A DNA stretch of 64,000 nucleotides from positions 36,475,704 through 36,539,703 of the forward strand of contig OW028582.1 in the NCBI GenBank assembly GCA_932294295.1, in the 5' to 3' direction. Origin of the DNA: Alitta virens. Lineage: Eukaryota > Annelida > Polychaeta > Phyllodocida > Nereididae. The translations under genes were made by a program, and so were the position numbers. Shown piece after piece: positions 2,031-20,440 of the stretch (positions within the stretch are counted from its first letter, which is position 1; each line of letters opens with the position of its first letter). A model generated the notes under the pieces. The model was not told where the DNA came from. It saw only the letters and a list, made by a program, of their open reading frames with translations, and searched no databases.

Positions 2031-2036
2031 AATGCT
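2031..2036. repeat. Polinton target site duplication, left (AATGCT)
   Basis: AATGCT immediately precedes the element and is repeated exactly at 20435-20440. Block B has one copy at 37115-37120 with both flanks continuous. A 6-bp duplication is the family hallmark. Confidence 0.97.
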
Positions 2037-2095
2037 AGTAGTATGTGGTGCGCGCTGATGTCAGAGCAGCGCCTCTGGTGGTAATTTTGGAACTA
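2037..2095 (+). repeat. Left terminal inverted repeat
   Basis: 59 bases identical to the reverse complement of 20376-20434. It begins AGTAGTATGTGG. Similarity breaks after the GGAACTA motif and continues as variant subterminal repeats. Confidence 0.97.
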
Positions 2096-2290
2096 GGGAT
2101 GTAATCCCCTGGTGGATATTTTGGAACTAGGGATATAAACCCCTGATGGTGCATTTTGGAACTAATAACTATGCCCCTAGAGGTAAATTGTGAAACTAGA
2201 GGCTCTGTTCCTATTGGTAAATTTTGGAACTAGGGTTCTGCTCCCCCCTCCTAGGGGTAAAATTGGAACTAAGGGGGTACAGATGATTCT
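2071..2290 (+). repeat. Left subterminal repeat array
   Basis: About five diverged copies of a 40-bp module combining a CCCCTRGTGG-like core with TTTTGGAACTAGGG. Related modules lie in the opposite orientation at the right end. The arrangement suggests repeated binding sites near the replication or transposition ends; that role is inference. Confidence 0.75.
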
Positions 2291-2395
2291 GCCACATGCT
2301 GCATGTAATATTAGTTATGGAATTTCAATATTTAACAGATGCATATTTATAATTGGTTGTGACTTGTAGCCAATCACGTGTAAGCTAACCAATGG

Positions 2396-2503
2396 GATAA
2401 CGGTTCGTTTAATATAAGATTGCAAATATAGTATATGGATTAGTATACACATTAGTACTAAGCAAGGGGCTTTAGTCATTTAGCTATTCTTATAAATATA
2501 AAA
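2396..2503 (+). promoter_or_regulatory. Probable promoter of the first Polinton gene
   Basis: AT-rich leader with TATA-like runs (AATATAAG near 2410, TATAAATATAAAA just before the start). No experimental motif can be assigned. Confidence 0.35.
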
Positions 2504-3220
2504 ATGGCAAGCAAGCAACTTTATTACGGAGCACCTGAAAGGTTGTTAAAACTTCATATGTCTTCTCAAACTCGCTTTATTACCTGTGAAATGGAAAAAG
2601 AAGATCCAGATAAACTTTTGTTAGCAAGAAGTTATTGCGAACTTCTATGGTGCCTCAAACAGACGCTATCAATTAGCCATGATTACTTAAGCCACAAAGA
2701 TATGACGTGTGGATGCAAGGATATCATACTGCACAGCGATCTCAGATCTATTATACACCAAGGTCAAATTGTTAATGATCTGATTGGCATCCAAATTGAT
2801 GAAGATAGAAATGACTGTTGGATGATATCTAATAGCAAAAAATTCTTTTTGATATGCCAATTTCTTGACAGCACATCAACTGAATTTCAAGACATGGAGG
2901 ATAACATGGATTTTTTAGAATATCAACTTGAATCCGAAATGAAGCACAGTGACATAGCAAGAAGATATTACAGTATACTGAAGGATCTGGAGAGCTATCT
3001 TCAAATGAATTGCCCTACATTAGACCATTATACAGGATGCCAATGTAAATCCTTTCTATTACTGAGCTCTGTATTAGCACGATACGTCACAGTTGAAGAA
3101 AATATTGATGAAATAATCAAGCAAGAAGTGGAAACTGACCCTACATCTTGCTGGCTTACTCAAACTATTGACAAATACAGGTTAATATGTTTAATTCACG
3201 ATATGGCGAGATGGATGTAA
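2504..3220 (+). CDS. Polinton unknown protein 1 (238 aa)
   Basis: A 238-codon frame with a good start context (AAAATGG), directly after the left terminal region and on the strand of the capsid genes. I do not recognise the family. The product looks mostly helical and mildly acidic, and carries scattered cysteines (CGCKD near residue 70, GCQC near residue 178). There is no signal peptide or membrane segment. It has none of the His-Asp/Glu-Gln-Cys pattern of adenain/Ulp1 proteases, so I do not call it the missing protease. The left-terminal position suggests an early or accessory role; this is inference. Confidence 0.7.
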   Translation: MASKQLYYGAPERLLKLHMSSQTRFITCEMEKEDPDKLLLARSYCELLWCLKQTLSISHDYLSHKDMTCGCKDIILHSDLRSIIHQGQIVNDLIGIQIDEDRNDCWMISNSKKFFLICQFLDSTSTEFQDMEDNMDFLEYQLESEMKHSDIARRYYSILKDLESYLQMNCPTLDHYTGCQCKSFLLLSSVLARYVTVEENIDEIIKQEVETDPTSCWLTQTIDKYRLICLIHDMARWM

Positions 3221-3294
3221 CACTGCGCATTCCACTGAGAATTGAGTCATTCACACTCAACCTTTAACATTATGCTTATATATATCATGATAAT

Positions 3295-3448
3295 TCAGTT
3301 TCACTTGGACATCTGATGGGAATCAGTACAGTCATGATTCTAACCTGCCACATCATTTTTATGGCACTGTGCGACCTACTGTACAGTCTAAATGATTTAA
3401 TATATAAACGAAAAATATCACGACAATTCAGTTTCACTTGGACATCTG
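3295..3448 (+). repeat. 22-bp direct repeat pair upstream of unknown protein 2
   Basis: The 22-bp sequence starting TTCAGTTTCACTTGGACATC occurs at about 3295-3316 and again at about 3427-3448, each preceded by a TATATA-rich stretch. It lies in the 250-bp gap between the first two genes. It may be a duplicated leader or regulatory site. Confidence 0.6.
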
Positions 3449-3466
3449 TCGTGAACAAGCGCTATC

Positions 3467-4018
3467 ATGATTTTAATACATTGGGCGATAATAGGGCAGA
3501 AGCTCTGTGGAAATGAACTGCATAATGTAATACTTTTCAAAAGCAGGTCTTTTAACACACTGGAAAAATGTCAAAGGAATTATGATATTTACGCCGTTAA
3601 TGGGATGATTACAGCATTGTCAAGTCAATTTCTCAGCTACAGTGTAAAGTACATTATAAATAATGTGGAAGAAGAATCGGAATCGGAATCAGATACGGAC
3701 ACGGAAGGCGAGGAAGAGATCGAGTCCAAGAATGGTGTAAAAACTACTAAACTCGGAAAAAACCCTAAAAATGGTCACCCTGCAATGTCCCATCCATCAG
3801 GCTTTGTTCGACACAATGGACGACCCGAAGATGTGAAAATGAAATGGAGACTGTATCTTGTAGACAAATGTCGTTATCGAGACCACTGGGAAGAAATTAC
3901 TTCTAGTACAGAAACTTTCTTAACTATAAGAGACGGCTTGGTAAATTTTTGGAATTCACAATTCGATAGATTTAATCCAGGAATTAAATATGAAGTTATT
4001 ATGGAGCTTGTAAACTAA
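3467..4018 (+). CDS. Polinton unknown protein 2 with acidic stretch (up to 183 aa)
   Basis: Open frame of 183 codons. The true start is uncertain: the first Met is at 3467, and an internal in-frame Met lies near residue 47. A Glu/Asp/Ser run of about 25 residues sits near residues 69-90, followed by a Lys/Gly/Pro/His-rich linker and a compact C-terminal part rich in Trp and Arg. No known domain is recognised. AATAAA occurs at 4061. It lies between unknown protein 1 and integrase on the same strand. Confidence 0.55.
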   Translation: MILIHWAIIGQKLCGNELHNVILFKSRSFNTLEKCQRNYDIYAVNGMITALSSQFLSYSVKYIINNVEEESESESDTDTEGEEEIESKNGVKTTKLGKNPKNGHPAMSHPSGFVRHNGRPEDVKMKWRLYLVDKCRYRDHWEEITSSTETFLTIRDGLVNFWNSQFDRFNPGIKYEVIMELVN

Positions 4019-4212
4019 TCATTATACAAACTATATCAATAACATGCTGTAAAGTTTGACAATAAATGTATTCAGATACTTTAAAAAATTGTTATTACGT
4101 CACTTATGCATGTATCACGTGATATGACCGCTAACTGATTTCTTTAGTCGCTTCGAGCTAGTAACTAGTTCAGTCTTATCAATGATACCGGCAGCCAAGG
4201 TATATGTAACAA

Positions 4213-5313
4213 ATGGATAAGGTATTTAATTCCTATCTTGAAAAGATTTATTACCAACCGCAGTCTCCAGGAAGTTTTACAAGCAGGGATAAAATTTGGA
4301 GGTTTATCCGGTCAAGGCGTGACAAACCCAAAGGTTTAACATTAAAAATTGTTGAAGAATGGTTGCAACTTCAAGACACACCATCTGTGTATAAATCTCG
4401 AGGTTCTAAGTTTAAAAGAGAAAAAATAATTGTCTCTTGTAGAGATGAACATTGGTCTGCTGACCTAATGGATACAAGTAAACTAAAAAAAGAAAATGAC
4501 AATGTAACTTTTATATTAGTTATAGTTGACATCTTTTCCAAATTTTGCTGGGCAGAGCCACTTATTAATAAAAAAGCTGAAACAGTTAAAAAAGGTTTCA
4601 CTAGGGTTTTCGACCAGGGGCGTATCCCACAAAGAATTTGGGTAGACGCTGGAAGCGAATTTCAAAATAACTTACTGAAAGTATATTTCAAGGAAAAAGA
4701 CGTTCACATGTTCATAGCTAGGTCAGAAAGTAAGTCAGTCTTTGCGGAACGTCTGATTAAAACGTTAAAGTTGAAAATGTATAAATATATGTATCACAAA
4801 CAAACTTACAAGTATATCGATGTTTTAAGTGATATAGTGTATTCATACAACAATTCATATCACAATTCAATCAAAATGGCTCCAATGGCCGTAAACAGTG
4901 CAAATGAACTTGATATTTACACCACGCATTACATGCCGACTGTAAATAAAAACAGTGTCACGGTGAAGAAACCATCATTTGCCAAAGGAGATTTGGTCAG
5001 ACTATCTCATGCTAAAGGTAAATTTACTCGTTCCTTCAGAGAAAGTTTTACTGAAGAAATATTTAAAATTAATTACGTTATATTATCCACACCACCCAGA
5101 TACACAGTTGAAGACGGTTTAGGCGAAAAACTTAAGGGCAGTTTTTATGCACATGAATTGGCACTAGTACATCCTGACGATAATAGATCGTATAAAATAG
5201 ATAAGATAATAAAATATAGAAATAATAAAAGGCAAGCTCTAGTTTCATGGTACGGTTATTCTAGCAAATTTAACTCTTGGATACCATCAAGTAATATAAA
5301 AAGGTACAAGTGA
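4213..5313 (+). CDS. Polinton integrase (RVE fold) with C-terminal chromodomain
   Basis: 366-aa retroviral-type integrase that would insert the element and make the 6-bp duplication. Visible parts are an N-terminal Tyr-rich helical region ending in an EEWLQLQD motif (residues 1-55), then an rve core. The acidic triad is D84 (SADLMD), D145 (VDAGSEF) and E179 (FAERLIKTLK), a D-D34-E arrangement. The segment around MAPMAVN at about residue 223 is typical of the Polinton/adintovirus branch. Residues from about 325 form a chromodomain-like module (SWYGYSSKFNSWIP). The frame is uninterrupted and usual in length. It is separated by 28 bp from the penton-like gene. Confidence 0.95.
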   Translation: MDKVFNSYLEKIYYQPQSPGSFTSRDKIWRFIRSRRDKPKGLTLKIVEEWLQLQDTPSVYKSRGSKFKREKIIVSCRDEHWSADLMDTSKLKKENDNVTFILVIVDIFSKFCWAEPLINKKAETVKKGFTRVFDQGRIPQRIWVDAGSEFQNNLLKVYFKEKDVHMFIARSESKSVFAERLIKTLKLKMYKYMYHKQTYKYIDVLSDIVYSYNNSYHNSIKMAPMAVNSANELDIYTTHYMPTVNKNSVTVKKPSFAKGDLVRLSHAKGKFTRSFRESFTEEIFKINYVILSTPPRYTVEDGLGEKLKGSFYAHELALVHPDDNRSYKIDKIIKYRNNKRQALVSWYGYSSKFNSWIPSSNIKRYK

Positions 5314-5341
5314 ATACATTATTTTTAAATTAATATATCTA

Positions 5342-5794
5342 ATGGAGGTAACTAAACGCATAATATACGTGTCTAGTGAAGATTCCAAAATATATTTTCC
5401 CACGAACAATCAGCAACGTTTCACATACGTTTTGAGTGCACCTTTTATTTTAGAGGGAAAGTGGGAAGTTGGATTACGAGATATAACTGTCACTCTAAGT
5501 ACTGCTGTACAATCTATGGATCCAATTATACTTGACATTAGTTTAGAACAGGCCAGTGGTAACATAAGACAGGGTATTGAAAGCATGGTCATATAAAGAG
5601 CTATCTGCAATCCTAGAAAAGATTGTACGTCAATTTACTCTCTGTCAGGCTATTTAGACACAGTTAAGCTGAGGTCACCTTATCTGGATCGCCTGGACTT
5701 TGTTATAACCCCAGTTCAACCAAACAATTTGTCATTTGATAACCAGGCATCTGCACACTTAACACTCATTCTGCAAAAAGTCCGAGAAAACTAA
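5342..5794 (+). pseudogene. Penton-like minor capsid protein, in-frame stop
   Basis: The first 84 codons match the N-terminal part of Polinton/adintovirus minor capsid (penton) proteins: a beta strand ending in a PTNNQQRF-type motif, then LEGKWEVGLRDI (residues about 38-49). A TAA at 5594-5596 ends the frame. The same frame then stays open for 65 more codons to 5792-5794 and includes a C-terminal-like strand (LDFVITPVQPNN). A single nonsense mutation or a small deletion at the join would explain this. The total of about 150 codons is shorter than typical penton proteins. Function as a vertex protein is inferred from family and position before the major capsid gene. Confidence 0.7.
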
Positions 5795-5852
5795 GTACAG
5801 TAATAATGATTTTCAAAACAAGTTAAACATAGAGCAGTGGGAGGATTATTTT

Positions 5853-6217
5853 ATGAACCAAGTAAAAGGAAATGAACAAAGAAAAAAAAATTCAGGACAG
5901 TCTATAGTTAGTGGAGGCATAGACCATGGAGAGGACTCAGAATCCTTATCTGTGGTAGGTAGTTTAAAAAGGAGAATTCGCCAGAAGATCCAATTACATT
6001 AACCATGACGTCACCAGCTTCAGCTACAGTTGAAATGGCCAAATCTGAACTAGTTAATATTAAAGATGAAATACATACAAATATAGGCAGTTCGAAAAGA
6101 TCACTCAAGAGGAAGTCATCTAGCTCTGCCAACAAAAGGGATATTAAGAAAAAAAGGAATAACAACCAGGTTAATTCTTACAAAGACGTATTTTCACGTC
6201 ACGGGAATAAGTCATAA
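5853..6217 (+). pseudogene. Small basic minor virion protein-like gene, frameshifted
   Basis: Two short frames abut. 5853-6002 (49 codons) has WEDYFMNQ just upstream of and around its Met, and a basic end. 6005-6217 (70 codons), in another frame, is Ser/Lys/Arg-rich and ends in an RHGNKS tail. Polintons and adintoviruses carry a basic pVI-like minor virion protein here, with a Tyr-rich start, a Gly-His-Gly segment and a Lys/Arg-rich tail with a short hydrophobic end. The two frames resemble its halves, so I read this as one frameshifted gene. Two separate small genes remain possible. Confidence 0.45.
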
Positions 6218-6307
6218 AATATAGTATAATATACTATATTACATAAACAGTAATTATCATTTTACTTAAGTCTCTGTTAAGTTATTAATATTATCATAGA
6301 TATCATA

Positions 6308-7615
6308 ATGAGTCGTGACAGTGTGCCTGATAATGCAATGATGGGTGTTACACCTCAGCTAGATTTATTTCAACTGCCCATTATTCAAAACGGTATTGAA
6401 AGAAATATCATAATAGAGTATAGACCTACTTCACAGATTAGTTCACAAGAGGCACCAGTATCATTTGTTTTGGGGGGTGACTCTAAACATTACCTTGACC
6501 TCAGAAAAACAAAATTGTATGTTAAAGCTAAAGTGACAAGAGAAGATGGCACAGCTGTGCCAAAAGATGAAAAGGTAACCACAACTAATCTGACTCTGCA
6601 TTCAATGTGGAATCAAATTGATATCAAAATATCAGGTCATTCCTTATCTTTATCAGACAATGCCTATGCATATAAAAGCTATATACAAACGCTATTAAAA
6701 TCGTCAAGTGATGTTAAGGATTCACAGTTATGCGCACAGATGTATTATAGTGATGACGGCAATATGGAAAAATGTGCATTAAATACAGGGGCCGCTAGCA
6801 GAATGAAACTCTTTGCCGAAAGTGCTAGTGTGGAAATGGAGGGTCCTATTTTAGAAGACATATGCCAAACATCACGGTATATTTTGAATAATACGCAAGT
6901 AGAACTAAAACTGTTCAGATCAAGACCTGAATTTATAATTTTAACTGAAACTGAAAATAAATATAAATTACACATAGAAGACATTTGCCTTAAAGCGTGT
7001 TATGTGGATGTTAATCCAGGTGTTATTACAGGGCATGCAAAGGCACTTGAGAAATCTAATGCAATTTATCCCTTTGTCAGAGTTCAAATGAAGTCTTTTA
7101 ATGTCAGTACAGGAAGTAGACAATTCTGTTTTGAAAACTTATTCAACACAGAGTGTCCTACCAAAGTTCTAGTAGCTTTTGTTGAAAGTGATAGTTTCAG
7201 TGGCAATTTTAAGAAAAACCCTTTTAACCTGCAACATTTTAAATTGAACGAGATAGAGCTTTGTTGCGATGGCACAAGTGTACCTTCAAGACCAATGAAG
7301 TTTAACTTTGATGATGAGGGTCGCGAGGTAGTGACACCTTATCTTAGATTGCATGAATGTCTGGGTGGTCATTGCAACTCAACATTTGGTACAGGTTTAA
7401 CAATGGAAATGTTTTCTAAGGGTCATTCTATTTACTCGTTTCCAGTGTACGGGGCGGGAGGTGAAGGAAGTTTTATGGAAGTTAAAAAGAGTGCTAATGT
7501 TAGAATACAGGGCACATTTGCAAATGCTTTAACACAAGCAGTAACTATCGTTATTTATGGGGAGTTTCCATCTGTGGCTGAAATTGAGGGTAGTAGGAAT
7601 GTAATAGTAAATTAA
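6308..7615 (+). CDS. Polinton major capsid protein (double jelly roll)
   Basis: 435-aa major capsid protein (PY in Polinton nomenclature, hexon-like). The start region LDLFQLPIIQ followed by IIEYRPTS, then YLDLRKTKLYVKAKV (about residues 61-75), is the N-terminal signature of the family. A first jelly roll follows, with an N-terminal WNQIDIKISG strand, and a second with YPFVRVQMKSF. It ends in the conserved IYGEFPSVAEIEGSRNV element. The frame is full length and open. It lies 57 bp before the packaging ATPase, the usual order. The product would form the icosahedral shell. Confidence 0.93.
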   Translation: MSRDSVPDNAMMGVTPQLDLFQLPIIQNGIERNIIIEYRPTSQISSQEAPVSFVLGGDSKHYLDLRKTKLYVKAKVTREDGTAVPKDEKVTTTNLTLHSMWNQIDIKISGHSLSLSDNAYAYKSYIQTLLKSSSDVKDSQLCAQMYYSDDGNMEKCALNTGAASRMKLFAESASVEMEGPILEDICQTSRYILNNTQVELKLFRSRPEFIILTETENKYKLHIEDICLKACYVDVNPGVITGHAKALEKSNAIYPFVRVQMKSFNVSTGSRQFCFENLFNTECPTKVLVAFVESDSFSGNFKKNPFNLQHFKLNEIELCCDGTSVPSRPMKFNFDDEGREVVTPYLRLHECLGGHCNSTFGTGLTMEMFSKGHSIYSFPVYGAGGEGSFMEVKKSANVRIQGTFANALTQAVTIVIYGEFPSVAEIEGSRNVIVN

Positions 7616-7671
7616 GTGAGATGACTCATAACTACTATTTATTTTATTTTAGAAATAGCTGAAAGGAAACC

Positions 7672-8364
7672 ATGGGTCCTATAATACAACAGGATGATCA
7701 AGGTCATTGTTATATACCTTTTGAATCACCCATTTCATTAACAGTATGCGGATCATCAAACTCTGGAAAATCTACATTTATAGCAGCTTTATTGGACAAC
7801 AAAAGTAAAATGTTTACACCTGAGCCACAAGAAATAATATTTGTTTATTCTGCGTGGCAGCCGTTGTATGATAGGCTAGAAAGGACGGTACCAAATATAA
7901 AATTTATGAATAGAATTCCAACAAAATCTGAAGTTGTACAAATGACTGAAGATTTAGAACATAGAATGATGATACTTGACGATCAAATGACTCAACTTTC
8001 ATCATGTCCTGACATTACAGAGTATTTTACTGTCTTCAGTCACCACAGAAATCTTTCATGTATTTTAGTATTGCAGAATGCGTTATATCAAGCCCAGTGT
8101 GTAAGGGACATATCATACAATGTTCAAGGTATGATTATATTTAGAAATCTTAGGTCTCCCCAACAGGTTGGAATTTTAGCCACTCAAATGTTTCCTGGAA
8201 AAAAAAGAAAATATTTTTTAGACGCCTATAAACAGGCATGCCTTGACAGGCAATTTGGTTATCTATATTGTGATATAAACCCAAGAAATGATATGAAGTA
8301 TCAGTTGAGAACTGACATCCTACCAGGTCAAGACACCATAATATTTTTACCTAAAGCAGCCTAA
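7672..8364 (+). CDS. DNA-packaging ATPase (FtsK/HerA superfamily)
   Basis: 230-aa genome-packaging ATPase that would pump element DNA into capsids. Walker A is GSSNSGKST at residues 27-35. Walker B is MMILDDQ, with the Asp pair at 103-104. A sensor-like HHRNLS motif follows at about 124-129. Length and the neighbourhood just after the major capsid gene match other Polintons. The stop TAA shares its last base with the next ATG (TAATG at 8362-8366). That tight packing suggests reinitiation or shared transcripts. Confidence 0.93.
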   Translation: MGPIIQQDDQGHCYIPFESPISLTVCGSSNSGKSTFIAALLDNKSKMFTPEPQEIIFVYSAWQPLYDRLERTVPNIKFMNRIPTKSEVVQMTEDLEHRMMILDDQMTQLSSCPDITEYFTVFSHHRNLSCILVLQNALYQAQCVRDISYNVQGMIIFRNLRSPQQVGILATQMFPGKKRKYFLDAYKQACLDRQFGYLYCDINPRNDMKYQLRTDILPGQDTIIFLPKAA

Positions 8365-8678
8365 TGAAAGATTTTGACAAATTTTTCGATTTGGTAAAGG
8401 TTATAACTACCTCTGATGATAAAGCTGTAAAAGCTATTATTAAAACATCTCCTGAGCAGTTTATCAAATTCATAGGCGATATATCCTTAAATATTTTATA
8501 TGAAATAATACCGCTCACTGTATATTATTTAGATAAATTAAATAAACATTCAAGCATTGTTAGAAAAATAGGTTCTAGAAGATTGAAGTCTAGAAAGAGA
8601 CGGATTTTATGTACCAGATATAGTCAAATTGTTACAGTATTACTAAAAGCATCTTACAATTATTTATATACGCAGTAA
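8364..8678 (+). CDS. Small basic conserved Polinton protein (104 aa)
   Basis: 104 residues. An acidic/hydrophobic N-terminal helix is followed by the pattern LNILYEIIPLT (about residues 43-53), then a Lys/Arg-rich helix (RKIGSRRLKSRKRR) and a hydrophobic end. Many Polintons and adintoviruses encode a protein of this layout beside the ATPase: a short NLL...IPL segment, a basic segment and a leucine-rich tail. Its function is unknown. It overlaps the ATPase stop by one base and ends 2 bp before the next ATG. Confidence 0.65.
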   Translation: MKDFDKFFDLVKVITTSDDKAVKAIIKTSPEQFIKFIGDISLNILYEIIPLTVYYLDKLNKHSSIVRKIGSRRLKSRKRRILCTRYSQIVTVLLKASYNYLYTQ

Positions 8679-8680
8679 AT

Positions 8681-9229
8681 ATGGCCCAGGCGCATGTTAT
8701 GATATCTACTGATGAATATAATAGATTATTACAGAGACTTAAAGACTATGACAATGCAATGGATGGTCAGGTTCAGAGGGAGGCGAATTTACAGGGCGAC
8801 ACTACCGATAACATAAGCAGGCCAGATAAATCTTCCCGGAGTGAAAGGGATTTAAGTAAAAATAGCAAACCTAGTAATGCGAACAGTAGCTATAATAAGA
8901 AAGAATCTGTTAAAACGGAAAACAAAGATCTTGAAAACGAATTTAAAAATCTACTAAAAAGTGTTGAAGAATTAAAGACACAAACTGCAAGTCTCAAATC
9001 AGTAAAACAACCTTCTAGAAAACGTAATAATCCGCGTTCAGACAAAGACAGTAATCCTGACTCCAAAAAACGTAAAACCAAAGTGGCTACTTCAAAAACT
9101 AAGAAAATTACCAAAAAGGAAATAGCTGCTAAGTTAGTACCACCTGGTATCAGACAAGCACAAACTAAAGCTGCTAAGAATACATCAAGACAAAAAGAGA
9201 CAGATATAAAAACTTGGCTATCTGTATAA
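8681..9229 (+). CDS. Lys/Ser/Asn-rich basic protein, likely virion core-like
   Basis: 182 aa. It starts with a short predicted coiled segment (STDEYNRLLQRLKDYDN). A long low-complexity Ser/Asn/Lys region and a second helical stretch follow (LENEFKNLLKSVEELK, near residues 87-102). The C-terminal half is strongly basic with nuclear-localisation-like KKRKTK and KKITKKE. Polintons often end the morphogenesis cluster with such a protein. A DNA-condensing core role is inference. The start is fixed by the 2-bp spacing from the preceding stop. Confidence 0.6.
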   Translation: MAQAHVMISTDEYNRLLQRLKDYDNAMDGQVQREANLQGDTTDNISRPDKSSRSERDLSKNSKPSNANSSYNKKESVKTENKDLENEFKNLLKSVEELKTQTASLKSVKQPSRKRNNPRSDKDSNPDSKKRKTKVATSKTKKITKKEIAAKLVPPGIRQAQTKAAKNTSRQKETDIKTWLSV

Positions 9230-9508
9230 ACATACAACATTTCCCACAACGCAGTAGGTAGTATAATTTTAATAGCTCTTACAATCCATGGTATGCCTGT
9301 TAGTAAAGTTAGGACAAAGATGCTTCATTGTTTTGGGGGGTAAATTGTTTGCGATTGGCTAGAAGTTTAGTTAGAATGAATCTGAGTGGTTGTTGGATTA
9401 TAACGTCATGGTACTGCCTCCAAAATACGTCACAAGGTCTTCTGTTAAAAGAAATGGCCAGCACTATTGTAAAACACAAGTGAACTTCTTCTTCTGAATT
9501 TTACAACA
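9230..9508 (+). promoter_or_regulatory. Intergenic region before the PC4-like gene
   Basis: 280 bp without a coding frame. It probably includes the transcription start of the PC4-like gene. I see no clear TATA box. Confidence 0.3.
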
Positions 9509-10768
9509 ATGAGAGGCAAGGGCAAGTCCAAGGCACCAATCGAAACTATTGTATTGGACGAGAGCGAAGAAAGTGCGTCTGAGGCAACTTCAGCTCCAGT
9601 TAAAAAACACAAAATGGACAGGAACTCAAATGGACCTGACGAAGAGGCAGAAGCTTCTACTTCGTCTGGAGCATGCGGTGGACCACCCGGAGAAAGAGAG
9701 ACCTGGGTTCGAACCTAAACCAAAGGGCAATTCAGCCTCATCATTAGCATCTGCTGCTCTTGTGTCACCAGGTAAGTTCTTTTGTTTTTTCACTCATTTG
9801 TTGTTATGCTTAAATTACTTCTTTCTCACAATGATATTAATTGACGCACTTTTAAAAGTATACATCCCTCCCTGTTGCGTGGAATTATATATTTAGCGAT
9901 GTATGACCATACATTATTTAATACGGTGAACGCTTGTGAATTCTGTACAGCGCTAAATATTTAATTATGTACGACTGTACATTATTTCAACACTGAACAC
10001 CGGTGATTGATGTAAAGTATTAAATAATATAATATACATACATAAATTATTAAATAATGCGTTAGTACCTATGTATATTTAATGGTTAGTTTATAATAAT
10101 TATGTGATATAATTGTATTTATAGGAAATTTTGCTGATGAAATCGATGAAGACGTTCCAGCAAATACAGCATGTGACGCTATTCCGGAGGCGCCTCCTCT
10201 CGAGCCAATGGTGCTCAGTGAAGTCAGCAATATCCTACTTCTAAGGCCTCGTGCAATATTAGCTTTTCCCCTGGGCTATAGGGGTCGCTACATCGTTCTT
10301 TCTTCTTTCGGCGAAACAATGGGGCTGCATATCCGTGAGTTCCAGAATACGGCAACTGGGGCAAAGTTTCCCACGAAAAGAGGTGTTAGGATGACACCTA
10401 TGCAAGTCGCAGATTTACGGTATCACCTCCCAGAAATTAGAAACATTATGTATAGCATGAGGCCTGGTAGGACCTATCACTTTGGGAAGCATTTGTTTAT
10501 CAATGTTAACAACGATTTTGGTGCCAGTGCAGATTTGAGGCACTTTTTCACTCTAGCTAATGAGGATAATAGACTACAGCCGACCAGGCGTGGTATCAAA
10601 TTATCCGTCATAGAAATTGAAGCCATCATTTGGGCTCTTCCGAGATTTGCTGAAGTATGGCCTGAATTTGATGCCATTGATGAACCGTGCTTTGTTCGAC
10701 ACATGAGATGTCAAGGTCAAACAGAGTACATGGAATGCCCTCACTGTAACCCTGAATATCTTATTTAA
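9509..10768 (+). CDS. Tandem PC4 (SUB1/p15)-domain protein, two exons
   Basis: Exon 1 (9509-9771) encodes an acidic Ser-rich leader (LDESEESASEA) followed by KKHKMD, like the N-terminus of the coactivator PC4. It ends at a perfect donor, CCAG|GTAAGT. Exon 2 starts at 10125 after TTTATAG. The intron is phase 1 (9772-10124). Exon 2 holds two PC4-like ssDNA-binding repeats. Repeat 1 runs from FPLGYRGRYIVLSSF through HIREF to PTKRGVRMT. Repeat 2 runs from YHFGKHLFINV to PTRRGIKLS. A C-terminal CPHC motif may bind zinc. The exon-1 frame from the ATG meets a stop at 9716-9718, whereas the frame that splices correctly is one base off. So a single-base frameshift or another start between about 9509 and 9716 must exist. 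The role, binding ssDNA in transcription or replication, is inferred from the fold. Confidence 0.7.
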
Positions 10769-10925: not shown

Positions 10926-11867
10926 TCACACTTACTGTCACTTATATAATTGTCACAGAATATATATGCTAGAGTAATAATTCATGTCACTTATATAATT
11001 GTGACAGAATATATATGCTAGAGTAATAATTCAGTAGATTACGTTATGAAGTCTATTATTTATCCTGGCGGAGATTTACATGTTTTCAGTCATACATTAA
11101 AATGATACTGTTGTGATGTTTAAAATGTATTCATTTACGTAATAAAATGTTCTGATCTAAAACATGGCCTTTTACCTGTGTTGGGAACGGTGGTGATATA
11201 TTTTTATATATAAATATATTTTGAAAGAGTGATTGACTTTGCAATATAATAAGAAAAAGATGAAGAAGAAGAAGAAGACAAACATGATATGAGATTAATT
11301 GTGAGTTTGATAAATATATCCCTGAAATGAGCAGAATAAGTACACTTTTAGAAATACTAAGTGGTAGTGTTAGCGACACTTACTATAACTGAAACGCATT
11401 AGAATTTTAAAATGCTTCAACTCTGAACACTTTTGAAATATAAATGTGTAGTAGTATTATTCACTTTAAATGCTCAACTTAAAATGTTCAGAAACGTCCT
11501 ATATAATTCCCATGTGATACAATAACAAGATCACAACTTAATTGCATTTAAAATACCAGGTGTAGATTTAAGAATACAATTAAGTCATTATGCTTAACAA
11601 TGTCTATTAAGTATGTTTACAATATACCGAAGAGTCAGACAATCAACATGCGCATTTGTTTTGTCTGGCAATAATGAATTAAGTAGACATCCTTAAATTT
11701 AAGTTAGTCTTTAATATCAGAACAACTTTTAAAACAGCAGTGTTCACATGTGTAAATTACAGAGCTGTCTAAAAATGGAGTTTATTTCACAGATAATTAT
11801 TTTCTACATAGAGGAGTTGTAGTATCAACATTCAGTCTTCGTTGAATATGAGTGCTTGCTCTAAGTC
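10926..11867. other. AT-rich intergenic spacer with 52-bp tandem repeat
   Basis: No credible gene. A 52-bp unit (TGTCACTTATATAATTGTSACAG...) occurs twice at about 10934-11035. The remainder is AT-rich spacer between the convergent PC4 and glycoprotein genes, and likely holds both 3' ends. Confidence 0.6.
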
Positions 11868-14132
11868 TCATGCGGTGAAATCTAGGGTCTTCCACAATTT
11901 CGTCGCACATAAGTCTACATCACGCATTTCATCCGCACTTCGAGAATGACCCGGACTGCGGGGTAAGTCTGGGTCTCCGCAACACAGTGAACCTCTATTT
12001 GACTGACTTTGACCAAAGGTCAAACAAACTCTATTATTTACTGTATCATGTTGCGCAAATACCCTTAAAGCTGTCGGTGTTACAATGTCATTTCTTAATG
12101 TCACACTATCGTTTGCAATGGACATAGGCGGAGCAGAGGGCGCGTGAACTTGTGCCCTCGTATAACCGTCGTCGGTACAGATTGATGATGAAAAAACTGC
12201 CGGAGATGAGGCTGTTAATGAACTAAACACGTGTTCTGGAAAATTGTGAAGAATGGGTGAACATATTACTGGCGAAGTTTGATACAAGAAAGTTTCCAAT
12301 TCTTCAGGGCTAGCTGACTCAATTTCCGTCATCGGGATGTACTGGTCTTGTGAAGAGTATACCTGTATTGAAGTATATATAACAATATAATTGTACTGTT
12401 ATTAAATTAATTTAAGTAATGCTTGGAATTATAATTTTAAAATAGGCATAATTTAAGTAACGTGTTTACTATAATTTTAAAATAAGAATAATTTAAGAAA
12501 TGCGTTTATTATAATTTTAAAATAACAATAACTTTAGGGTTGTATTATATTATGATTTAGAATATTAAATAATTAAGAATTGCATTATATTTAATTTAAA
12601 AATAAGAAATATACTTACATCATTTTGACGACGTTTTTTAAACAATTTAAATAATTTATATAGCGAGGCAAAAATCCCTGCAGAAACAAACGATATTGAC
12701 AAACTGCCTCCAATGGAAATTCCAACAATTTCACCTTCTAGGTTTTCTGAGGGCTCAATACTAATTTTAATTTTGGGCTTATCATCATCGGGATTTTCCT
12801 GTAAAAGAAATTAAAGATGGAAAATCCAAAACAGCAATGTTAATATAAAGATAAATACTTGTTTGATGTAAATAAGCATTACTATAAATACTTACCAATT
12901 TAGTTGATATCTTGGGGGTATAATTAAAGATTGCCATCTGACTAGAAACTATGCGCATTGCAGTTGTGGTCTGGGGGCTCATTTGTCCAGTAACCTTTCC
13001 AGTATTACTCTGTATAGTAGAACGCGAAGAAATAGCTACATTAGGCTGCATAGTACTAGTTAGAGTAACATGTAGATTTCTAAAGAGAGTACTACCTAGA
13101 CTGCTAGGTTGTGTACTAGATATAGTATGCAATATAGTGCTTAGCGCAGTATTAGCGACAGTCCTAGGTAAAGTACTGGCAACAGTAGTAGGTAAAGTAC
13201 TAGATATAGAACTTGTCAACACACTGTCAACATTGTCTGGTACATTACTCACTACAGTACCAACAACAGTACTATGCACATTGGACTGTGCAATGTTATT
13301 ACTGTCACTGTCAGAAAGGTTTGCTGTGGTGTAATCATTTTCCTCAACACTCTGAGATGCAAAATCCTGTAACAAAAAATACTTGTGTTACGCATTATAT
13401 GCAGTAATTTTAGAAATATATGAGTCTATAATTTGGCAACAGCCCTAATGTGTCTAGGCTTTTTTAAAAAAGAATAGAACATAGCCTCGAATATAACTGT
13501 GAAGTTTACAGTTGCCCTATAAGCCTGTTGTATAATAATCTCTATCATGTTGTTTTATTTAAGCTTTAGTGTACCTAGATTTAAGATAATAGGATTAAGT
13601 TTGAATAAATGCACATTTTAATAAATATTTACCTCTGATGTAGTAGATGTCAATGTAGCATTTTTGAAATTTAACTCTGTTGTAGTAGATATCGATGTAG
13701 CATTTTTGAAATTTAAATTTCGGGTGACAAACAGTTTCTGTTAACGAGAAAAATATATAACTAAATAATTGTATGAAATAATTTGTATTACAATTTATAA
13801 CTGTGTTAATTATTAAGATAACTCACCTTACATTCATCTGGATATATTTCTAAAGGTTTCCAGCTAATCCTTTTCAAAATTATTATAGGACAACCAAAGG
13901 GATATTTCACAGTAATCGTTGTTTCTGTGCAGCCTGTCATGTCAACTATTCCTTTTCGTGTTAAAACGATTATTGTTGCATCTATTCCACAAAATGCAGG
14001 TGAAATAACTATCCTCATTCCAGAGCATATAGTAGAAGTGTCGCTTGTCTTGACACATTTAAATTTCGAGCAATTTCCATGTATAGAAAAAATTGCAAAT
14101 AAAGCCGCAATGTGCAATGCAAAGACCTTCAT
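11868..14132 (-). CDS. Five-exon mucin-like type I membrane glycoprotein
   Basis: Exons on the minus strand are 14132-13827, 13737-13633, 13366-12896, 12798-12619 and 12362-11868. Every junction has GT-AG borders (GTGAGT, GTAAAT, GTAAGT, GTAAGT) and every intron is phase 0, giving 518 aa. Exon 1 encodes a signal peptide (hydrophobic ALHIAALFAIFSI) and a Cys-rich ectodomain. Exon 2 has two tandem copies of LNFKNAT with N-glycosylation sites. Exon 3 is a 157-aa Ser/Thr-rich mucin-like stalk with repeats of the STLPTTVAS type. Exon 4 has a Gly/Ser-rich hydrophobic segment (GISIGGSLSISFVSAGIFAS) and a basic stop-transfer KKRRQND. Exon 5 is a 164-aa cytoplasmic tail. No homologous family is recognised. 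It could be an attachment or envelope-like protein or captured host cargo. Confidence 0.8.
12405..12560. repeat. Intronic tandem repeat, about 50-bp unit
   Basis: In intron 4 of the glycoprotein gene, three to four copies of a unit containing TATAATTTTAAAATAA and TAATTTAAG with small changes. No coding content. Confidence 0.6.
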
Positions 14133-14361
14133 TACTTCTTTTCTTGTATTGAAAGAACTCCCCTCCAGGTAATTAAGCTGTCATGCATGATTTAACTTAT
14201 TTACAGCCACCAGATGTCACTGTGTGATTTATTCATATCAGAAGCCACCTACCGGATTTTTCTTGACTTTAATTAAATATTAGTGACTAAAGGATCTCTT
14301 GCCATTTCGCAGTTAGAAATACATGAGATAAGTGTGTTTCTTTTTGTACTGAAGAATCAAA
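14133..14361. promoter_or_regulatory. Shared divergent promoter region
   Basis: 229 bp separate the start codons of the minus-strand glycoprotein and the plus-strand small membrane protein. Both genes probably start transcription here. There is no clear core motif beyond AT-rich tracts. Confidence 0.4.
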
Positions 14362-14691
14362 ATGAGGTCTACAGATGGTCAGAGTGAAAGAATTGAAGAC
14401 GGTTGCAATCCTACATTTGTCACTATAGATTTACCAAACAGAAAAATGGAAAATGATATAATTGCACAGTCTCTGGGTAAAAGACCTTTATTACCAGTCA
14501 AATTAGGCAATAAACAAAGTCATAAATTTATAACGCTGCTATTGCTTACCATAATATCTGTTTCAGGGCTAATTGGGATGTTAAAACCTACATATAACAA
14601 TGAAAGATTTGATTATCAGCCTCATTTAGAGGCACTAAACTCTTTAACAAATTTTTCTATACTAAATGGTACTATAAAGGTATTTTATTAA
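14362..14691 (+). CDS. Small type II membrane protein
   Basis: 109 aa. A hydrophilic N-terminal part of about 55 residues precedes one hydrophobic helix (FITLLLLTIISVSGLIGML, about residues 55-73). A short outer part follows with two N-glycosylation sites (NFS, NGT). No cleavable signal is seen, so a type II orientation is likely. A possible alternative end uses a donor at 14680 (AAG|GTATTT) and an acceptor after a pyrimidine tract at 14735, giving a 15-codon second exon to 14783. It lies divergently beside the mucin-like glycoprotein, so the two may act together at membranes; this is inference. Family not recognised. Confidence 0.55.
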   Translation: MRSTDGQSERIEDGCNPTFVTIDLPNRKMENDIIAQSLGKRPLLPVKLGNKQSHKFITLLLLTIISVSGLIGMLKPTYNNERFDYQPHLEALNSLTNFSILNGTIKVFY

Positions 14692-14783
14692 TTATATGTC
14701 TTGCATTGCATCTCACATATATACCCTCCCTACAGTTTAACAACTTTCCTAACTCAGAATTGTTTAGCAGCTTTAAATGGTGA

Positions 14784-15088
14784 ATCATCGGGTTGAATAC
14801 CCCTACCCTTCCCATTTAACAATTTATAGGGGCTTTGTTTAGCATATAAATAAACTGCAGTGAAAAAGTGTAGCAGTTTGTTACTTGTCTTGATGAGAGA
14901 CCTCCCATATACCGGTAGACAACACTGGGACAATTTGGTTAAAGATTGACACAAAAGCTTTGCACCATTTGCAAATGGAGCTTTAAGGATTATATTCAGA
15001 TGTTGGTTAAATAACTTCCTTATAATGTACCAACGACAGAGTAAATAACATTATTATAGTGCACAAAAAAACAAAAAAAACAACGACA
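14784..15088. other. Spacer upstream of the polymerase gene
   Basis: No coding frame worth calling. An A-rich leader lies immediately before the polymerase start, and promoter elements are presumably here. Confidence 0.4.
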
Positions 15089-18000
15089 ATGGCATCAAAC
15101 AACTTAAATACACCAAGCAGCCAGAAGAGGGCACTTGAGGATGGCAACGACTCTGAGACATCTGTTGGAAATACTGTAAGTTGTACGGTTTCTATTTTAA
15201 TTGTGCAAAATTAATTCACTGTTGAAAAACTTGTATTTTACTTATAAGTATTAATTTTTGTTATTGTAGGGAGACAATATAGGATCATTTTTAAAACACC
15301 CTAGACTTGAACCGCAGCAAAAAAACCCGTATAATCAAAGTCTACTAAACACAAACTTGGTAAGTTTACTTAAGGGATGTTATTTGAATACACTTCTGAA
15401 TATTATACTTCCATTTTAAATTTATTTATGAACCAAAACAAAATAGTATGATTTTACATTCCTTATTATAGGCAAAATTTAAGTAGTAAGAGATAAGCGC
15501 TGATGGTAGTTTATAAAATACACATATTTTATTTAGTGACATGTTTGTTGGATATTTACTCTTCATTTTAAGGTGGCAGAAAGCAAGCCCTATTCCATTG
15601 TACAGAGTAGAATTACAAAAACATGGAAACGAGGTGTGGAAGAAAAAACCTACAGAGCCAATTTCAGCGCTGAAAAAACAGGTATTTTTCAATAATTGTA
15701 TGTTATATTACTTTAACTTTGTATTATGAGTTATTGGGACTTTGAGTATTGTTTTTACAATTGTATGCATTATTTTACAACAGGAGCCAGGCTATTAGAT
15801 ATTAAAGAAGACCTAGTGCGTATGTTTGATGAGGTCATTAACATCGCTTCAACTAATTATGATGGGAAAGACAAGGCTAGACTTACTATAGCCCACTCTG
15901 AGATGCCAGAAGAAATATTTGTACACATGAGAGATGTTTCTAACCTAACAGGAAGAACAGTGATGGAAAGATTTGAAAAAGTGCTTAACTCCCACCAAGA
16001 TATGACTGTTGACGAGTCCTTTGAGATATCAGTTGGCCTCATGAGGTTATTTAAAGGAGGCAGTCCTACAAAGAGAAGTGGTAGGACTCTCCCTCTATTT
16101 CCTCATTTGAACAAAACATTATATAGTTCTATTGTAAACAAAAAAGCCATTGTGGAAATAATTTGTGAAGACAATGAATTTATCTGTGCAGCAAAAAGTA
16201 TTGTTGTTTGTATGGCTAAGCTTGAAAATATGAGACGAAATGACTTTCTCAATTTGATCAGGAAGAACAGACAATGTTCCAATGGTCCACAGACGCTGAA
16301 GACCAAAGCATTAGAACTACAAGAAAGGGCTGGACTTCCCACTGATGAACCCCTGACAATTTCAGAGTTGGCTGCTTTTGAATCTGTGCTAAAGGTAAAA
16401 ATAGCTGTAATTCAATTTGCAGACGAATCAAATACGCCTGTAGTTTCAGAAGTTTCAGGTAGTGAATATGACAATGTGATATTTCTGTATCATACTGATG
16501 ACCATTTTCATGCTGTAGTCAATCACAGAGCCATGTTTCCTAAAAGTAACCTTTGCATGCAGTGTTTTGAGGTGTACAATGTGAAAGATAAATCCCACCC
16601 TTGCCTAGAAGGCCAAAAAAGCAATTGCATTGTTTGTAAAAGACATGAGTGTAATTTTGGTGAAACTATTACCTGTGAAGACTGTAACATGACTTGTAGA
16701 AACATGTCCTGCTTTGATTCCCACAAGAGGTTAACAAAATCTGAAAAAACACTATGTGAAACAAGGTACAAATGTAAAGAGTGTGGAAAAGTTATCTTAA
16801 CAAAAGAACAAAGCATTGTGGATCATGTCTGCGGTCAATACAAATGTCTTTATTGTTCAGAATATGTATATCAAGATCATTTATGTTACCTCAGAAGGAA
16901 AAAAATTAAACTATCATCAGGTAAATTTGTATTTTTTGACTTTGAAACAATGCAGGATGATGTCTTTCAATGTGAATATGGTTATGTTAAAAGAGGTCAT
17001 AGCGGCCAAGGTGATTGCAGTAAGTGTACTGATGAATATGAATGCCCCTCTTGCAGAATCTGTGTCAATTGTAGGACACCTAATTGCAATAGAAATTATC
17101 ATATTCCTAACATGGTTGTATGTCAAACAGCCTGCGATTCCTGTAAAGATGAAACTCTTAAAGAAAAGCCTAATTGCAGTAAATGTGGTAACCTTTGTAT
17201 GCAGTGTCAAAAGTCAAGATCACAAAAGGATGACAGTACAGTTGATTGCGATGTTAGTTGGTGTGGTGAACGAGAATTGGTTTTTAAGGGCCCTGACACA
17301 GTTTATAACTTTTGCACATGGCTAATATCACCTTTACATAAAAATTACACAGCTTTAGCACATAATGGAAAAGGCTTTGATTTTTCATTTATTTTGAACT
17401 TTTGTGTCAGTGAAGCCAGAATAAAACCTCAATGCATTTACGCAGGATCTAAAATAATGTGTATGGAAATAAAAGATGGCATAAATCTGAAGTTTATTGA
17501 TAGTATAAACTTTATGGGAATGAGCTTAAAAAAGCTTCCAAATGCATTTTCATTACGACCTGAAAGTGAGCTTGATGGTGATGTACATGAACTTGCTAAG
17601 GGGGACTTTCCCCATCTCATGAATACAAAAGAATATCAAGATTACTGTGGAACTTTTCCTACTCTTGCCATGTATAACATGAATGCAATGCCAGTTAAAG
17701 AACGTGAAACATTCATTGAATGGCACAAAAAACAAAGTGGAAAAGTGTTCAATTTTCAGAAAGAACTGCTATCTTATTGTAAGCTTGATGTCACCATTTT
17801 AAGGTTGGCTTGCTTGAAATTTCGAGATATCATCACTGAAATAACTACCATCAAAAGTGATGACGGCGATGTATTAGGCGTAGTAGATGTGTTTGCCCAT
17901 GTGACAATTGCCTCTGCATGTATGCAGATTTTTCGAGTTAATTTTATTGAAGAATACTATGATGTAACATTATGTGATGGCAGGGGTGGTAAAGCTCTTT

Positions 18001-19898
18001 TTAAAACTGGTAAATGGTATTTAGGTGAAGAGCCTATCTCACCAGGTGATATAATAGAAAGAAAGTTTGTTTCCTCATCTATTGCACAAGTGCCTGCCCA
18101 AGGCTATGTCAGAAACAGTAATCACTCCTATAAGTCTATTTTATGGCTGGAGTGGGAAGCTAAAAAACTTGGTAGAGAAATTGTACATGCTAGAAACAGG
18201 GGTGAACATCCAGTGCGATGTGGTTCATCCACTTATCTACTAGATGGCTATGATAAAACTAACAATGTCTGTTACGAATTTAATGGTTGCAGGTATCATG
18301 GATGCTATTGTATAAAGGACAGAAAACTGAAAGATCCTAGAACAGGTTTTTCCATGGAGGACTTACATAAAAACACAAAAAGGAAAGAAAATGATTTAAA
18401 AGCAATGGGGTATAATTTGATAATAATGTGGGAATGTGAATTTGATAAGATTGTAAAACAGGATGAAGAGTTACAAAAGTTTATCCAAGAGTTAGATGTA
18501 CCTGAACGATTGTCAATCAGATCTTCGTTCTTTGGGGGGCGCACAGAGTGTTTCAGTCTTCATCATTCATGTAAAGAAGATGAGGAAATCCATTATATTG
18601 ACGTCTGTTCAATGTATCCATTTCTAAATAAACATTCCAAGTTAGTTGTAGGCCACCCTGAAATTATATGTAGAGATTTTGACTACAGTATGCAGAGTTA
18701 TTTTGGCATTGCGCATGTCAAAATATTACCACCTAAAGATCTGTACATACCTGTACTACCCCTCAGAGTGACTGGTAAGTTAACATTTCCACTTTGTGCT
18801 GCTTGTGCAAAATTAGATATACCCCCAGAAATTTGTGAACATTCCAATGAAGAAAGGGCTATTAAAGGTGTTTATTGCACTCCAGAAATAATGGCAGCAA
18901 TTGACAAAGGTTATGTCATCATGAAAATATATGAAGTTTACCATTATCCAGAGACATCTCAATATGATAGTGAAACTATGAAAGGTGGGTTGTTCACAGA
19001 GCAAGTTAATTTATTTATCAAAATAAAAACTGAAGCAAGTGGCTATCCTCAATGGGTGGAAAGTGAGTCTGATAAAAACAAATTTGTAAAGGAATACAGA
19101 GAAAAAGTGGGGGTTGCTTTAGATAAAGACAAAATACAAGTCAACCCTGCTTTGAGAAGTATAGCAAAAATATTCCTTAATTCCTTCTGGGGTAAACTTG
19201 GCGAAAAAAACAACAAGTTAAAAACACAGTTTATTTCTGACACTTTATCACTTGCAAAATTACAGAATAACTCAAAATATTGCATTCAGAATGTTCATGT
19301 TGTTAATGAAGATGTCATGGTTGCTGAATATAACTGTGACACAACTTTTGAAGAAGAGAGTAATGTTACTAATGAAATTTTGGCTTCACTGACAACTTGT
19401 TATGCTAGATTAGAGCTTTTAAAGCATATGGATTTTGTAGGAAGACGAATTCTTTATTGTGACACAGATAGCATAATTTTTGTAACTCAACCCACTCTTG
19501 ATTCAAATGGTCACAAAGTTTATGATAATTACCCTCTGTTGGGTGATTGTTTAGGTGACCTTACTAATGAATTAGAATTAGGTACTTACATAACAGATTT
19601 TGCATGTGCTGGACCTAAATCATATTCATACAGGACAACTGATGGCCATGAAAGTGTGAAGTTTAAAGGTGTGAAAGTTAATTTTTTTAATTCACAAATA
19701 ATTAATTTTGATTCTGTAAAAGAACTAGTCATGGATTTTAACAAAACTGTTACATTGACACCTCAAACTCAGTTTAAAAGATGTAAATATGGCGGCATAA
19801 TCTACAATACATCTCTGGTAAAAAAACTCACATGTACATTTGATAAAAGACAAATTTTACCATCCCTAGATACCATACCTTTTGGCTTTGTAGAATAG
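15089..19898 (+). CDS. Protein-primed DNA polymerase B, four exons
   Basis: Exons are 15089-15175, 15270-15359, 15573-15681 and 15784-19898, with GT-AG introns of phase 0, 0 and 1, giving 1466 aa. This pPolB would replicate the element from a terminal protein. Exonuclease motifs are FFDFET (Asp about 481), HNGKGFDF (Asp about 628) and YCKLDV (Asp about 764). Polymerase motif A is DVCSMYP (about 1035), motif B NSFWGKLGE (about 1228), motif C YCDTDS (about 1322). A Cys/His-rich zinc-binding region spans about residues 360-610. The conserved YEFNGCRYHGC module lies between the exonuclease and palm domains. The N-terminal part, with VYLYH-like FLYHTDDHFHAVV, resembles the OTU-like leader of Polinton polymerases. 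The three leader exons encode a Ser/Asn/Lys-rich tail. Confidence 0.93.
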
Positions 19899-20130
19899 GA
19901 AGATATAATGCTTTTATTTTGAATTTGTGTTATCTATATTTATGTAATCTTACATCATTAACATGAACACCAGTATAGTCTGCAGAAAATGTTTTGTACA
20001 ATTGTATGTCTTTCAATGTAATTCTTGAAAATATATGTTTTATACTATCTCACTTGTGTTTGATAATAAATGTTACTAATGTCTTTATAATAAAATTCTC
20101 AAACTGTATCTTGATTTTGTACTTATTTCA
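19899..20130 (+). terminator. Polymerase 3' UTR with polyadenylation signals
   Basis: AATAAA hexamers occur at 20065-20070 and 20089-20094, about 170-190 bp after the polymerase stop. No other gene lies here. Confidence 0.6.
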
Positions 20131-20149
20131 TATACTGTTAACCTTAGAG

Positions 20150-20375
20150 CGATTTTTACGTCCCTAGTGCACGATTTAGCACTAGAGGGCTTTATGTTTG
20201 TAGTACCAAAATTTCAGCCAGGGGTTTAATTCCCTAGTTCCAAATTTAACACAAGAGGGCTTTTACGTCTGTAGTACCAAAATTTCAGCCAGGGGTTTAA
20301 TTACCTAGTTCCAAATTTAACACCAGAGGGCTTTTACGTCTGTAGTACCTAAACTTTCCGCTAGGGGTTTATATA
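20150..20375 (-). repeat. Right subterminal repeat array
   Basis: Three copies of a roughly 75-bp unit (AGAGGGCTTTTACGTCTGTAG, then AGGGGTTTAATT, then TAGTTCCAAATTTA) precede the right inverted repeat. The TAGTTCCAAA element is the inverse of the left-end GGAACTA module. Confidence 0.75.
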
Positions 20376-20434
20376 TAGTTCCAAAATTACCACCAGAGGC
20401 GCTGCTCTGACATCAGCGCGCACCACATACTACT
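20376..20434 (-). repeat. Right terminal inverted repeat
   Basis: Exact inverse of 2037-2095 over 59 bases, ending CCACATACTACT. Confidence 0.97.
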
Positions 20435-20440
20435 AATGCT
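20435..20440. repeat. Polinton target site duplication, right (AATGCT)
   Basis: Second copy of AATGCT. The flanking sequence CTTCTGATACTTC continues as in block B at 37121. Confidence 0.97.

What the first reader, a model, noticed from the sequence alone, without database searches (positions are those of the whole stretch)
2031..20440. Complete Polinton with its own empty site in the same window
AATGCT flanks an 18,398-bp element with exact 59-bp inverted ends. The paralogous site at 37115-37120 is unoccupied and its flanks are continuous. The coordinate offset drops by exactly 18404 across the insertion. Boundaries are therefore known to the base, and the insertion postdates the segmental duplication.
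Basis: partly seen in the sequence, partly recalled or inferred. Interest (0 to 1): 0.9.

Follow-up and report, generated by a model that had tools for sequence, protein, structure and literature searches.

The report
Young Polinton beside its empty site
An 18.4-kb virus-like jumping element (a Polinton, also called an adintovirus) inserted recently into one copy of a duplicated stretch of a genome, and the other copy still shows the empty site; the kind is known, but the genome holds many close copies and relatives.

Summary
An 18,398-bp element (2037-20434) has identical 59-bp inverted ends and AATGCT on both sides. Gene content (integrase with chromodomain, DNA polymerase B with a vOTU-like motif, double-jelly-roll capsid, weakly matching ATPase, tandem-PC4 protein) makes it a Polinton of the adintovirus type. 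The same ends form 13 pairs in the genome, 11 with exact 6-bp duplications. Four siblings differ from it by about 0.4%; the host blocks differ by about 1% near the site. So the insertion is young. Two corrections: the penton-like frame is interrupted here, so the ends are complete but the coding is not; and the host blocks look like an older duplication with a homogenised core, so the insertion postdates that homogenisation. Nothing is of a new kind: the tandem-PC4 protein resembles one labelled MOSUB in adintoviruses. Less ordinary is the load: 79 nearly full-length, stop-free capsid frames of several kinds, and a second Polinton nested in one sibling.

The parts
2031..2036 (.). left target-site duplication AATGCT
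2037..2095 (+). left 59-bp terminal inverted repeat, begins AGTAGT
   Evidence: 59/59 identical to the right end; same end in 13 pairs
2075..2164 (+). subterminal 34-bp tandem repeats, overlapping the inner end of the terminal repeat
2462..3217 (+). ORF1, 252 codons, unknown; no Pfam or PHROG match
   Evidence: pN/pS 0.13 over 5 of 8 copies read
3455..4015 (+). ORF2, 187 codons, unknown
   Evidence: pN/pS 0.32 over 6 of 8 copies
4210..5310 (+). integrase: rve core plus C-terminal chromodomain
   Evidence: PF00665 7.6e-8, PF00385 1e-5
5342..5593 (+). penton-like (minor capsid) frame, interrupted here; longer in copy C9
   Evidence: penton identity rests on position and recalled motif, no Pfam match
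6311..7612 (+). major capsid protein, double jelly-roll (stretch used in the searches; a Met codon lies at 6308)
   Evidence: AlphaFold2 pLDDT 85.5; Foldseek PBCV-1, mavirus, Sputnik capsids, E 1e-15 to 1e-13
7672..8361 (+). packaging ATPase candidate (FtsK/A32-like, weak matches)
   Evidence: pN/pS 0.03 over 8 of 8 copies
8364..8675 (+). small basic ORF of 104 codons, unknown
8681..9226 (+). coiled-coil-like basic ORF; look-alikes, by eye, lie next to the tandem-PC4 gene in two other loci
10130..10765 (+). tandem-PC4 protein (adintovirus MOSUB-like), predicted single-stranded-DNA binder; its start codon is not settled
11871..12398 (-). accessory ORF, 176 codons, unknown; 202 codons in C9
12788..13387 (-). 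Ser/Thr-rich accessory ORF, 200 codons
   Evidence: 5 copies compared: amino-acid changes only
13809..14180 (-). accessory ORF with signal-peptide-like start and cysteines (read by eye)
14353..14688 (+). accessory ORF, 112 codons, one hydrophobic stretch (read by eye); no sign of constraint
   Evidence: pN/pS 1.24 over 8 of 8 copies
15726..19895 (+). DNA polymerase B (organellar/viral type) with N-terminal vOTU-like Cys154/His260 motif
   Evidence: PF03175 1.4e-43; motif; pN/pS 0.31 over 5 of 8 copies
20174..20399 (+). subterminal 71-bp tandem repeats, overlapping the inner end of the terminal repeat
20376..20434 (-). right 59-bp terminal inverted repeat
20435..20440 (.). right target-site duplication AATGCT
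37117..37122 (.). unoccupied paralogous target AATGCT

Best explanation
A recent insertion of a Polinton/Maverick element of the adintovirus type. Shown by sequence: inverted ends, 6-bp duplication, empty paralogous site, near-identical siblings elsewhere, and the gene set. Inferred from the known families: linear DNA made by the protein-primed polymerase was joined to the chromosome by the rve integrase with a 6-bp stagger; the vOTU-like domain frees the terminal protein from the polymerase; the tandem-PC4 (MOSUB-like) protein coats single-stranded DNA during strand-displacement replication; capsid proteins and ATPase can package the genome. The window copy itself is probably not autonomous now, because its penton-like frame is interrupted; whether it moved with help from siblings or was damaged after landing is open.
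For: Identical 59-bp ends, 6-bp duplication and empty site. Thirteen end pairs in the genome, 11 with exact 6-bp duplications. Integrase with chromodomain, PolB and PC4 domains. Capsid fold. vOTU Cys in 28 of 28 rows with letters there (29 aligned) and His in 29 of 29. Mismatches per alignment column against siblings: C12b 73/18,963, C1 84/19,004, C3a 78/19,003, C4 87/18,763 (sums rows, which overlap slightly), about 0.4%, against 56/6,000 between host blocks around the site (15 stretches), about 0.9%. pN/pS below 0.5 for ATPase, capsid, ORF1, ORF2, integrase, PC4 and polymerase.
Against: Penton-like frame interrupted and some frames shorter than in C9. No cysteine maturation protease found among the frames scanned. 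ATPase matches are below cut-off. Siblings also have damage: the integrase frame of C4, the polymerase of C6a, and integrase, capsid, PC4 and polymerase of C6b are broken by length changes, and single stops lie in ORF1 of C9 and C6b, ORF2 of C6b and the small basic ORF of C3a. C6a (1.6%) and C6b are more diverged. The coiled-coil ORF (0.64) and ORF 14353-14688 (1.24) show little or no constraint. The role of the PC4 protein and any particle formation are untested.
Confidence: 0.92

Rival explanations
1. The two host blocks are unmerged haplotypes of one locus, so the empty site is the other allele rather than a paralogue.
For: About 1% divergence over some 6 kb around the site would fit heterozygosity.
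Against: Identity falls to about 95% upstream and to 97, 90 and 80% downstream, and the spacing of the blocks changes; haplotypes would be expected to stay more even. Read depth was not available.
Confidence: 0.07
2. The element was once in both blocks and was lost exactly from the second, by precise excision or by conversion with an empty copy.
For: The high-identity tract suggests conversion between the blocks, which could move an empty site.
Against: The second site has one intact AATGCT and no scar. I know of no precise excision of Polintons (recall, not searched). The low divergence from siblings fits a simple late insertion.
Confidence: 0.06
3. A sub-question inside the best explanation: the copy was mobilised in trans by siblings while already defective, rather than inserting as a working element.
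For: Penton-like frame interrupted in the window copy; an internally deleted relative on C8 keeps both end regions, matching 2037-4687 and 18810-20434.
Against: Polymerase, integrase, capsid and ATPase frames are open, and the lesions could have arisen after insertion, as decay in C4, C6a and C6b shows it can.
Confidence: 0.35

Closest known systems
Polinton/Maverick elements
   Same: AGTAGT ends, 6-bp duplications, rve integrase, PolB, double-jelly-roll capsid, ATPase candidate; 18.4 kb and 59-bp repeats lie inside the ranges given for intact vertebrate Mavericks (12.7-24.6 kb; 46-1,447 bp), whose commonest end motif is AGT twice (passages of PMC8097293).
   Different: Core genes lie on one strand, whereas vertebrate Mavericks mostly keep two opposed modules. 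No protease found; PRO was identifiable in 74% of a Polinton set (passage of PMC4028283).
Adintoviruses
   Same: [quoted passage not shown] The tandem-PC4 model's best viral match is MOSUB of the Branchiostoma lancelet adintovirus (E 4.2e-4, the only match under 0.001; TM 0.46-0.48), with MOSUB of an insect-associated adintovirus sixth (E 0.015).
   Different: Capsid and polymerase nearest relatives are unnamed proteins; the 24-row polymerase clade holds none of the 14 named animal proteins in the tree. Comparison with reference hexons was not made.
PC4 / MoSub1 / Pur-alpha nucleic-acid-binding fold

Membership tests
Polinton/Maverick | terminal inverted repeats with AGT-type ends and 6-bp target duplication | tested here: met
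   end motif and duplication size as in PMC8097293 passages
Polinton/Maverick | rve-type integrase | tested here: met
   PF00665 7.6e-8
[quoted passage not shown]
   PF03175 1.4e-43; vOTU motif. Protein priming itself is inferred
Polinton/Maverick | double-jelly-roll major capsid protein | tested here: met
Polinton/Maverick | FtsK/A32-like packaging ATPase | tested here: inconclusive
   only sub-threshold matches: AAA_15 0.0019, FtsK 0.0024, Pox_A32 0.047; strong constraint
Polinton/Maverick | penton (minor capsid) protein | tested here: inconclusive
   candidate frame by motif only, no Pfam match, interrupted here
Polinton/Maverick | Ulp1/adenain-type protease | tested here: inconclusive
Not identifiable in 26% of a Polinton set either
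Adintovirus | PolB with N-terminal OTU-like domain | tested here: met
   Cys/His motif only; no structure of this domain was predicted and Pfam gave no OTU match
Adintovirus | integrase with C-terminal chromodomain | tested here: met
   PF00385 1e-5 at residues 328-365 of 367
Adintovirus | hexon recognisable by BLASTP to reference hexons | not tested
   no named reference hexon was compared by sequence

The most novel reading that the evidence does not exclude
Several Polinton/adintovirus families are moving at the same time in this genome (host not identified, presumably an animal), one even into another, making it one of the most heavily and recently loaded genomes for these virus-like elements; relatives of the window's family are otherwise known to me here only as short unnamed contigs, which could be free viruses.
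Probability: 0.4. Interest if true: 0.6.

Novelty: new member of a known kind. Interest (0 to 1): 0.4.

Why it matters
The exact boundaries and the empty paralogous site give a clean age order for one Polinton insertion, and the 13 paired copies let insertion preference, decay and selection be measured on one family. The number of capsid frames in one chromosome-scale genome would let one ask whether Polintons still spread, and whether by infection or by copying within the genome. The age order is testable now with reads from several individuals; the question of particles is not answered here.

Tried and rejected
Apparent second type of element with the same ends: six pairs matched the window only at their tips. 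Copy C9, then read, is the same element in the opposite orientation. The other five were not read, but capsid and PC4 searches place this family's genes on the minus strand in all five.

Tandem-PC4 as a new Polinton gene: text searches for PC4 with Polinton plus transcriptional coactivator, with adintovirus and with virophage found no paper, nor did MoSub1 with adintovirus, but the viral structure library holds the fold under the label MOSUB in two adintoviruses. I dropped the novelty claim. The founding adintovirus paper, looked up by a DOI from recall, is not held.

Related loci in viral contigs: three scans found no relative. Rfam at gathering threshold and the tRNA scan of the window were empty. 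Sequence searches of solved structures gave nothing useful. Pfam on 30 capsid relatives gave no shared family. Host identity was not determined; a paper search on sea cucumbers followed a guess and led nowhere, as did a broader one. The script stopped with an error after eight genes; the 124-codon frame could not be used because the extracted segments differed in length. The copy count for the L051 family is missing (not completed).
Full report
Observation. AATGCT stands at 2031-2036 and 20435-20440, the element between is 18,398 bp, and its two ends are identical over 59 of 59 bases and then diverge. Self-comparison of the window gives blocks 1-2036 <-> 35087-37122 and 20435-23568 <-> 37117-40249, so the offset falls by 18,404. 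With the element left out, the 26 bases ending in the target and the 26 after it equal the empty site.

Copies in the genome. The window lies at C10:36475704-36539703 of a 671-Mb genome in 23 contigs. The 59-base end occurs 28 times with up to 3 mismatches, against none for the backwards control. The hits form 13 facing pairs and 2 single ends. Of the 13 pairs 11 have an exact 6-bp duplication and 2 (C3a, C3c) differ at one base. Pair lengths computed run from 18,041 to 36,444 bp, eight of them (the window's included) between 18.0 and 18.7 kb. I read seven of the other 12 copies (C12b, C1, C4, C6a, C6b, C3a, C9). The single end on C8 belongs to a copy matching the window only at 2037-4687 and 18810-20434; the single end on C3 shares only the 59 bases.

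Gene content. Integrase with rve core and chromodomain, polymerase B and a PC4-domain protein pass Pfam cut-offs; the ATPase has only weak matches. The capsid protein has no Pfam match above cut-off and no solved relative by sequence, but its model (pLDDT 85.5) matches double-jelly-roll capsids of PBCV-1, mavirus and Sputnik (TM 0.5-0.66). In the viral library the first match is an uncharacterised protein filed under a Cotesia bracovirus (23% identity), and adomavirus and adintovirus proteins are among the first ten. The polymerase N-terminus carries a Cys and a His at the places that I take for those assigned to a vOTU-like protease that would free the terminal protein (passages of PMC11071308). 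Of 32 relatives chosen, the 27 of at least 1,200 residues were aligned with the window and the nested element: the Cys stands in 28 of 28 rows with letters there, the His in 29 of 29. No Ulp1/adenain-type protease was found among the frames scanned.

State of the window copy. The penton-like frame ends after 98 codons here and runs 164 in C9. The frames between penton and capsid are split here and one frame in C9; the small frame near 9700 and the accessory frame at 11871-12398 are also shorter here. Integrase, capsid, ATPase, PC4 and polymerase are open. Genome-wide, the family's capsid gene is a full-length stop-free match in 10 of 13 copies, with C6b, C3c and C2 broken. The PC4 gene is a single full-length match in 12 of 13, one of these (C3c) with a flagged stop, and is split in C6b. 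Other damage in the seven siblings read: integrase of C4 and C6b, polymerase of C6a and C6b, and single stops in small frames of C9, C6b and C3a.

Age and selection. Over nearly the whole element the window copy differs from C12b, C1, C3a and C4 by about 0.4% and from C6a by 1.6% (sums; rows overlap slightly; C9 was not in that call, its genes are 97.6-100% identical). Host blocks show 1 to 9 substitutions per 400 columns in the 15 stretches around the site (56 in 6,000), but 17 and 22 in the two stretches further upstream; downstream the blocks are 97.4, 90.0, 79.1 and 79.9% identical, gaps counted, apart from a 267-base block at 100%. The core was therefore probably homogenised after an older duplication, and the insertion came after that. 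pN/pS over pairs of unbroken copies of equal length is 0.03 for ATPase (8 of 8 copies), 0.13 for ORF1 (5), 0.16 for capsid (7), 0.31 for PC4 (7), 0.32 for ORF2 (6), 0.43 for integrase (6) and 0.31 for polymerase (5). Pairs are not independent. The coiled-coil frame gives 0.64 and frame 14353-14688 gives 1.24 (8 copies each), and the Ser/Thr-rich frame has only amino-acid changes (5 copies), so these three show little or no constraint.

Load of the genome. The capsid search scored 97 of 1,399 candidates and gave 98 matches. By my count 79 rows are nearly full-length and stop-free: 10 of this family, 3 of a family 77-78% identical, 1 at 63%, 20 of 22 with 462-codon frames, 31 with 445- or 432-codon frames and 14 with 425-codon frames. 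Seventeen of the 22 462-codon rows show the same bit score. That these are whole Polintons is inferred; their surroundings were not read. Marker words of 48 bases occur 21 times (19 exact) for one PC4 family, 25 times (20 exact) for a second and 17 times, all exact, for the capsid of the family nested in C3a, each with no backwards control match. For scale, vertebrate genomes average 22 Mavericks and at most 38 fully intact ones were reported (passages of PMC8097293); my count is of one gene only, so it is not like for like. Mavericks are 1.69 and 1.93% in the two columns of a clam genome paper's table (passage of PMC8905726), so a high load is not unheard of.

Nested element. Sibling C3a carries a 17.8-kb insertion at the place matching window 10817-10822, flanked by TAATCG twice, with ends ACTACT...AGTAGT and its own polymerase, integrase with chromodomain, capsid and ATPase-like frames; a PC4 match is below threshold (0.082). 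Integrase, capsid, ATPase and polymerase are about 30-40% identical to the window's; the PC4 candidate shows no significant match. It therefore inserted after the element that holds it.

Relatives. The capsid search of public proteins found 35 relatives; none bears an animal name and the one with an organism name is filed under 'bacterium'. One (P0002) is identical at 267 of 272 aligned residues. In a tree of 55 polymerases (the window, the 40 top hits and 14 named animal proteins, out of 120 listed and 1,152 found) the window sits in a 100/100 clade with 23 unnamed proteins and none of the named ones. The longest contig listed for any of these 23 is 17.8 kb. That fits free viruses or poorly assembled host DNA equally well; their surroundings could not be read.

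Verdict. An ordinary kind of element in a very clear setting, with a genome-wide load that is worth following.

Noticed in passing
C3 39337062-39354826 (L039-L041): A second Polinton family, 17.8 kb with TAATCG duplication, is nested inside sibling C3a; its capsid marker occurs 17 times, all exact.
   Followed up: partly
whole genome G000: 79 nearly full-length stop-free capsid frames of several kinds among 98 matches, many with the same score.
   Followed up: partly
C4 15763301, 15791196, 15819091: Three capsid matches spaced exactly 27,895 bases apart: a tandem array or an assembly repeat.
   Followed up: no
L049 1070-2374, L050 1346-2669, L051 627-2127: In three other loci the tandem-PC4 gene is split into two frames, one repeat each.
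   Followed up: partly
C8 24731918-24736253 (L044): Internally deleted copy keeping both end regions of the window's family.
   Followed up: partly
C3 8545176-8545234 (L046): A lone 59-base end with no further similarity to the family.
   Followed up: no
L041 3126-3662 and 6278-6805: Two Cys-rich, RING-like frames in the nested element; only sub-threshold Pfam matches.
   Followed up: partly
window 33957-34616, 42761-43495: Two similar host frames that look, by eye, like multi-pass membrane proteins.
   Followed up: no
window 54789-55885: Nine copies of a 122-bp unit at 99%.
   Followed up: no
window 23821-24203: A perfect 189-bp tandem duplication in one host block.
   Followed up: no
P0002: A public capsid fragment 98% identical to the window's over 272 residues, on a 1,147-base contig.
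   Followed up: partly
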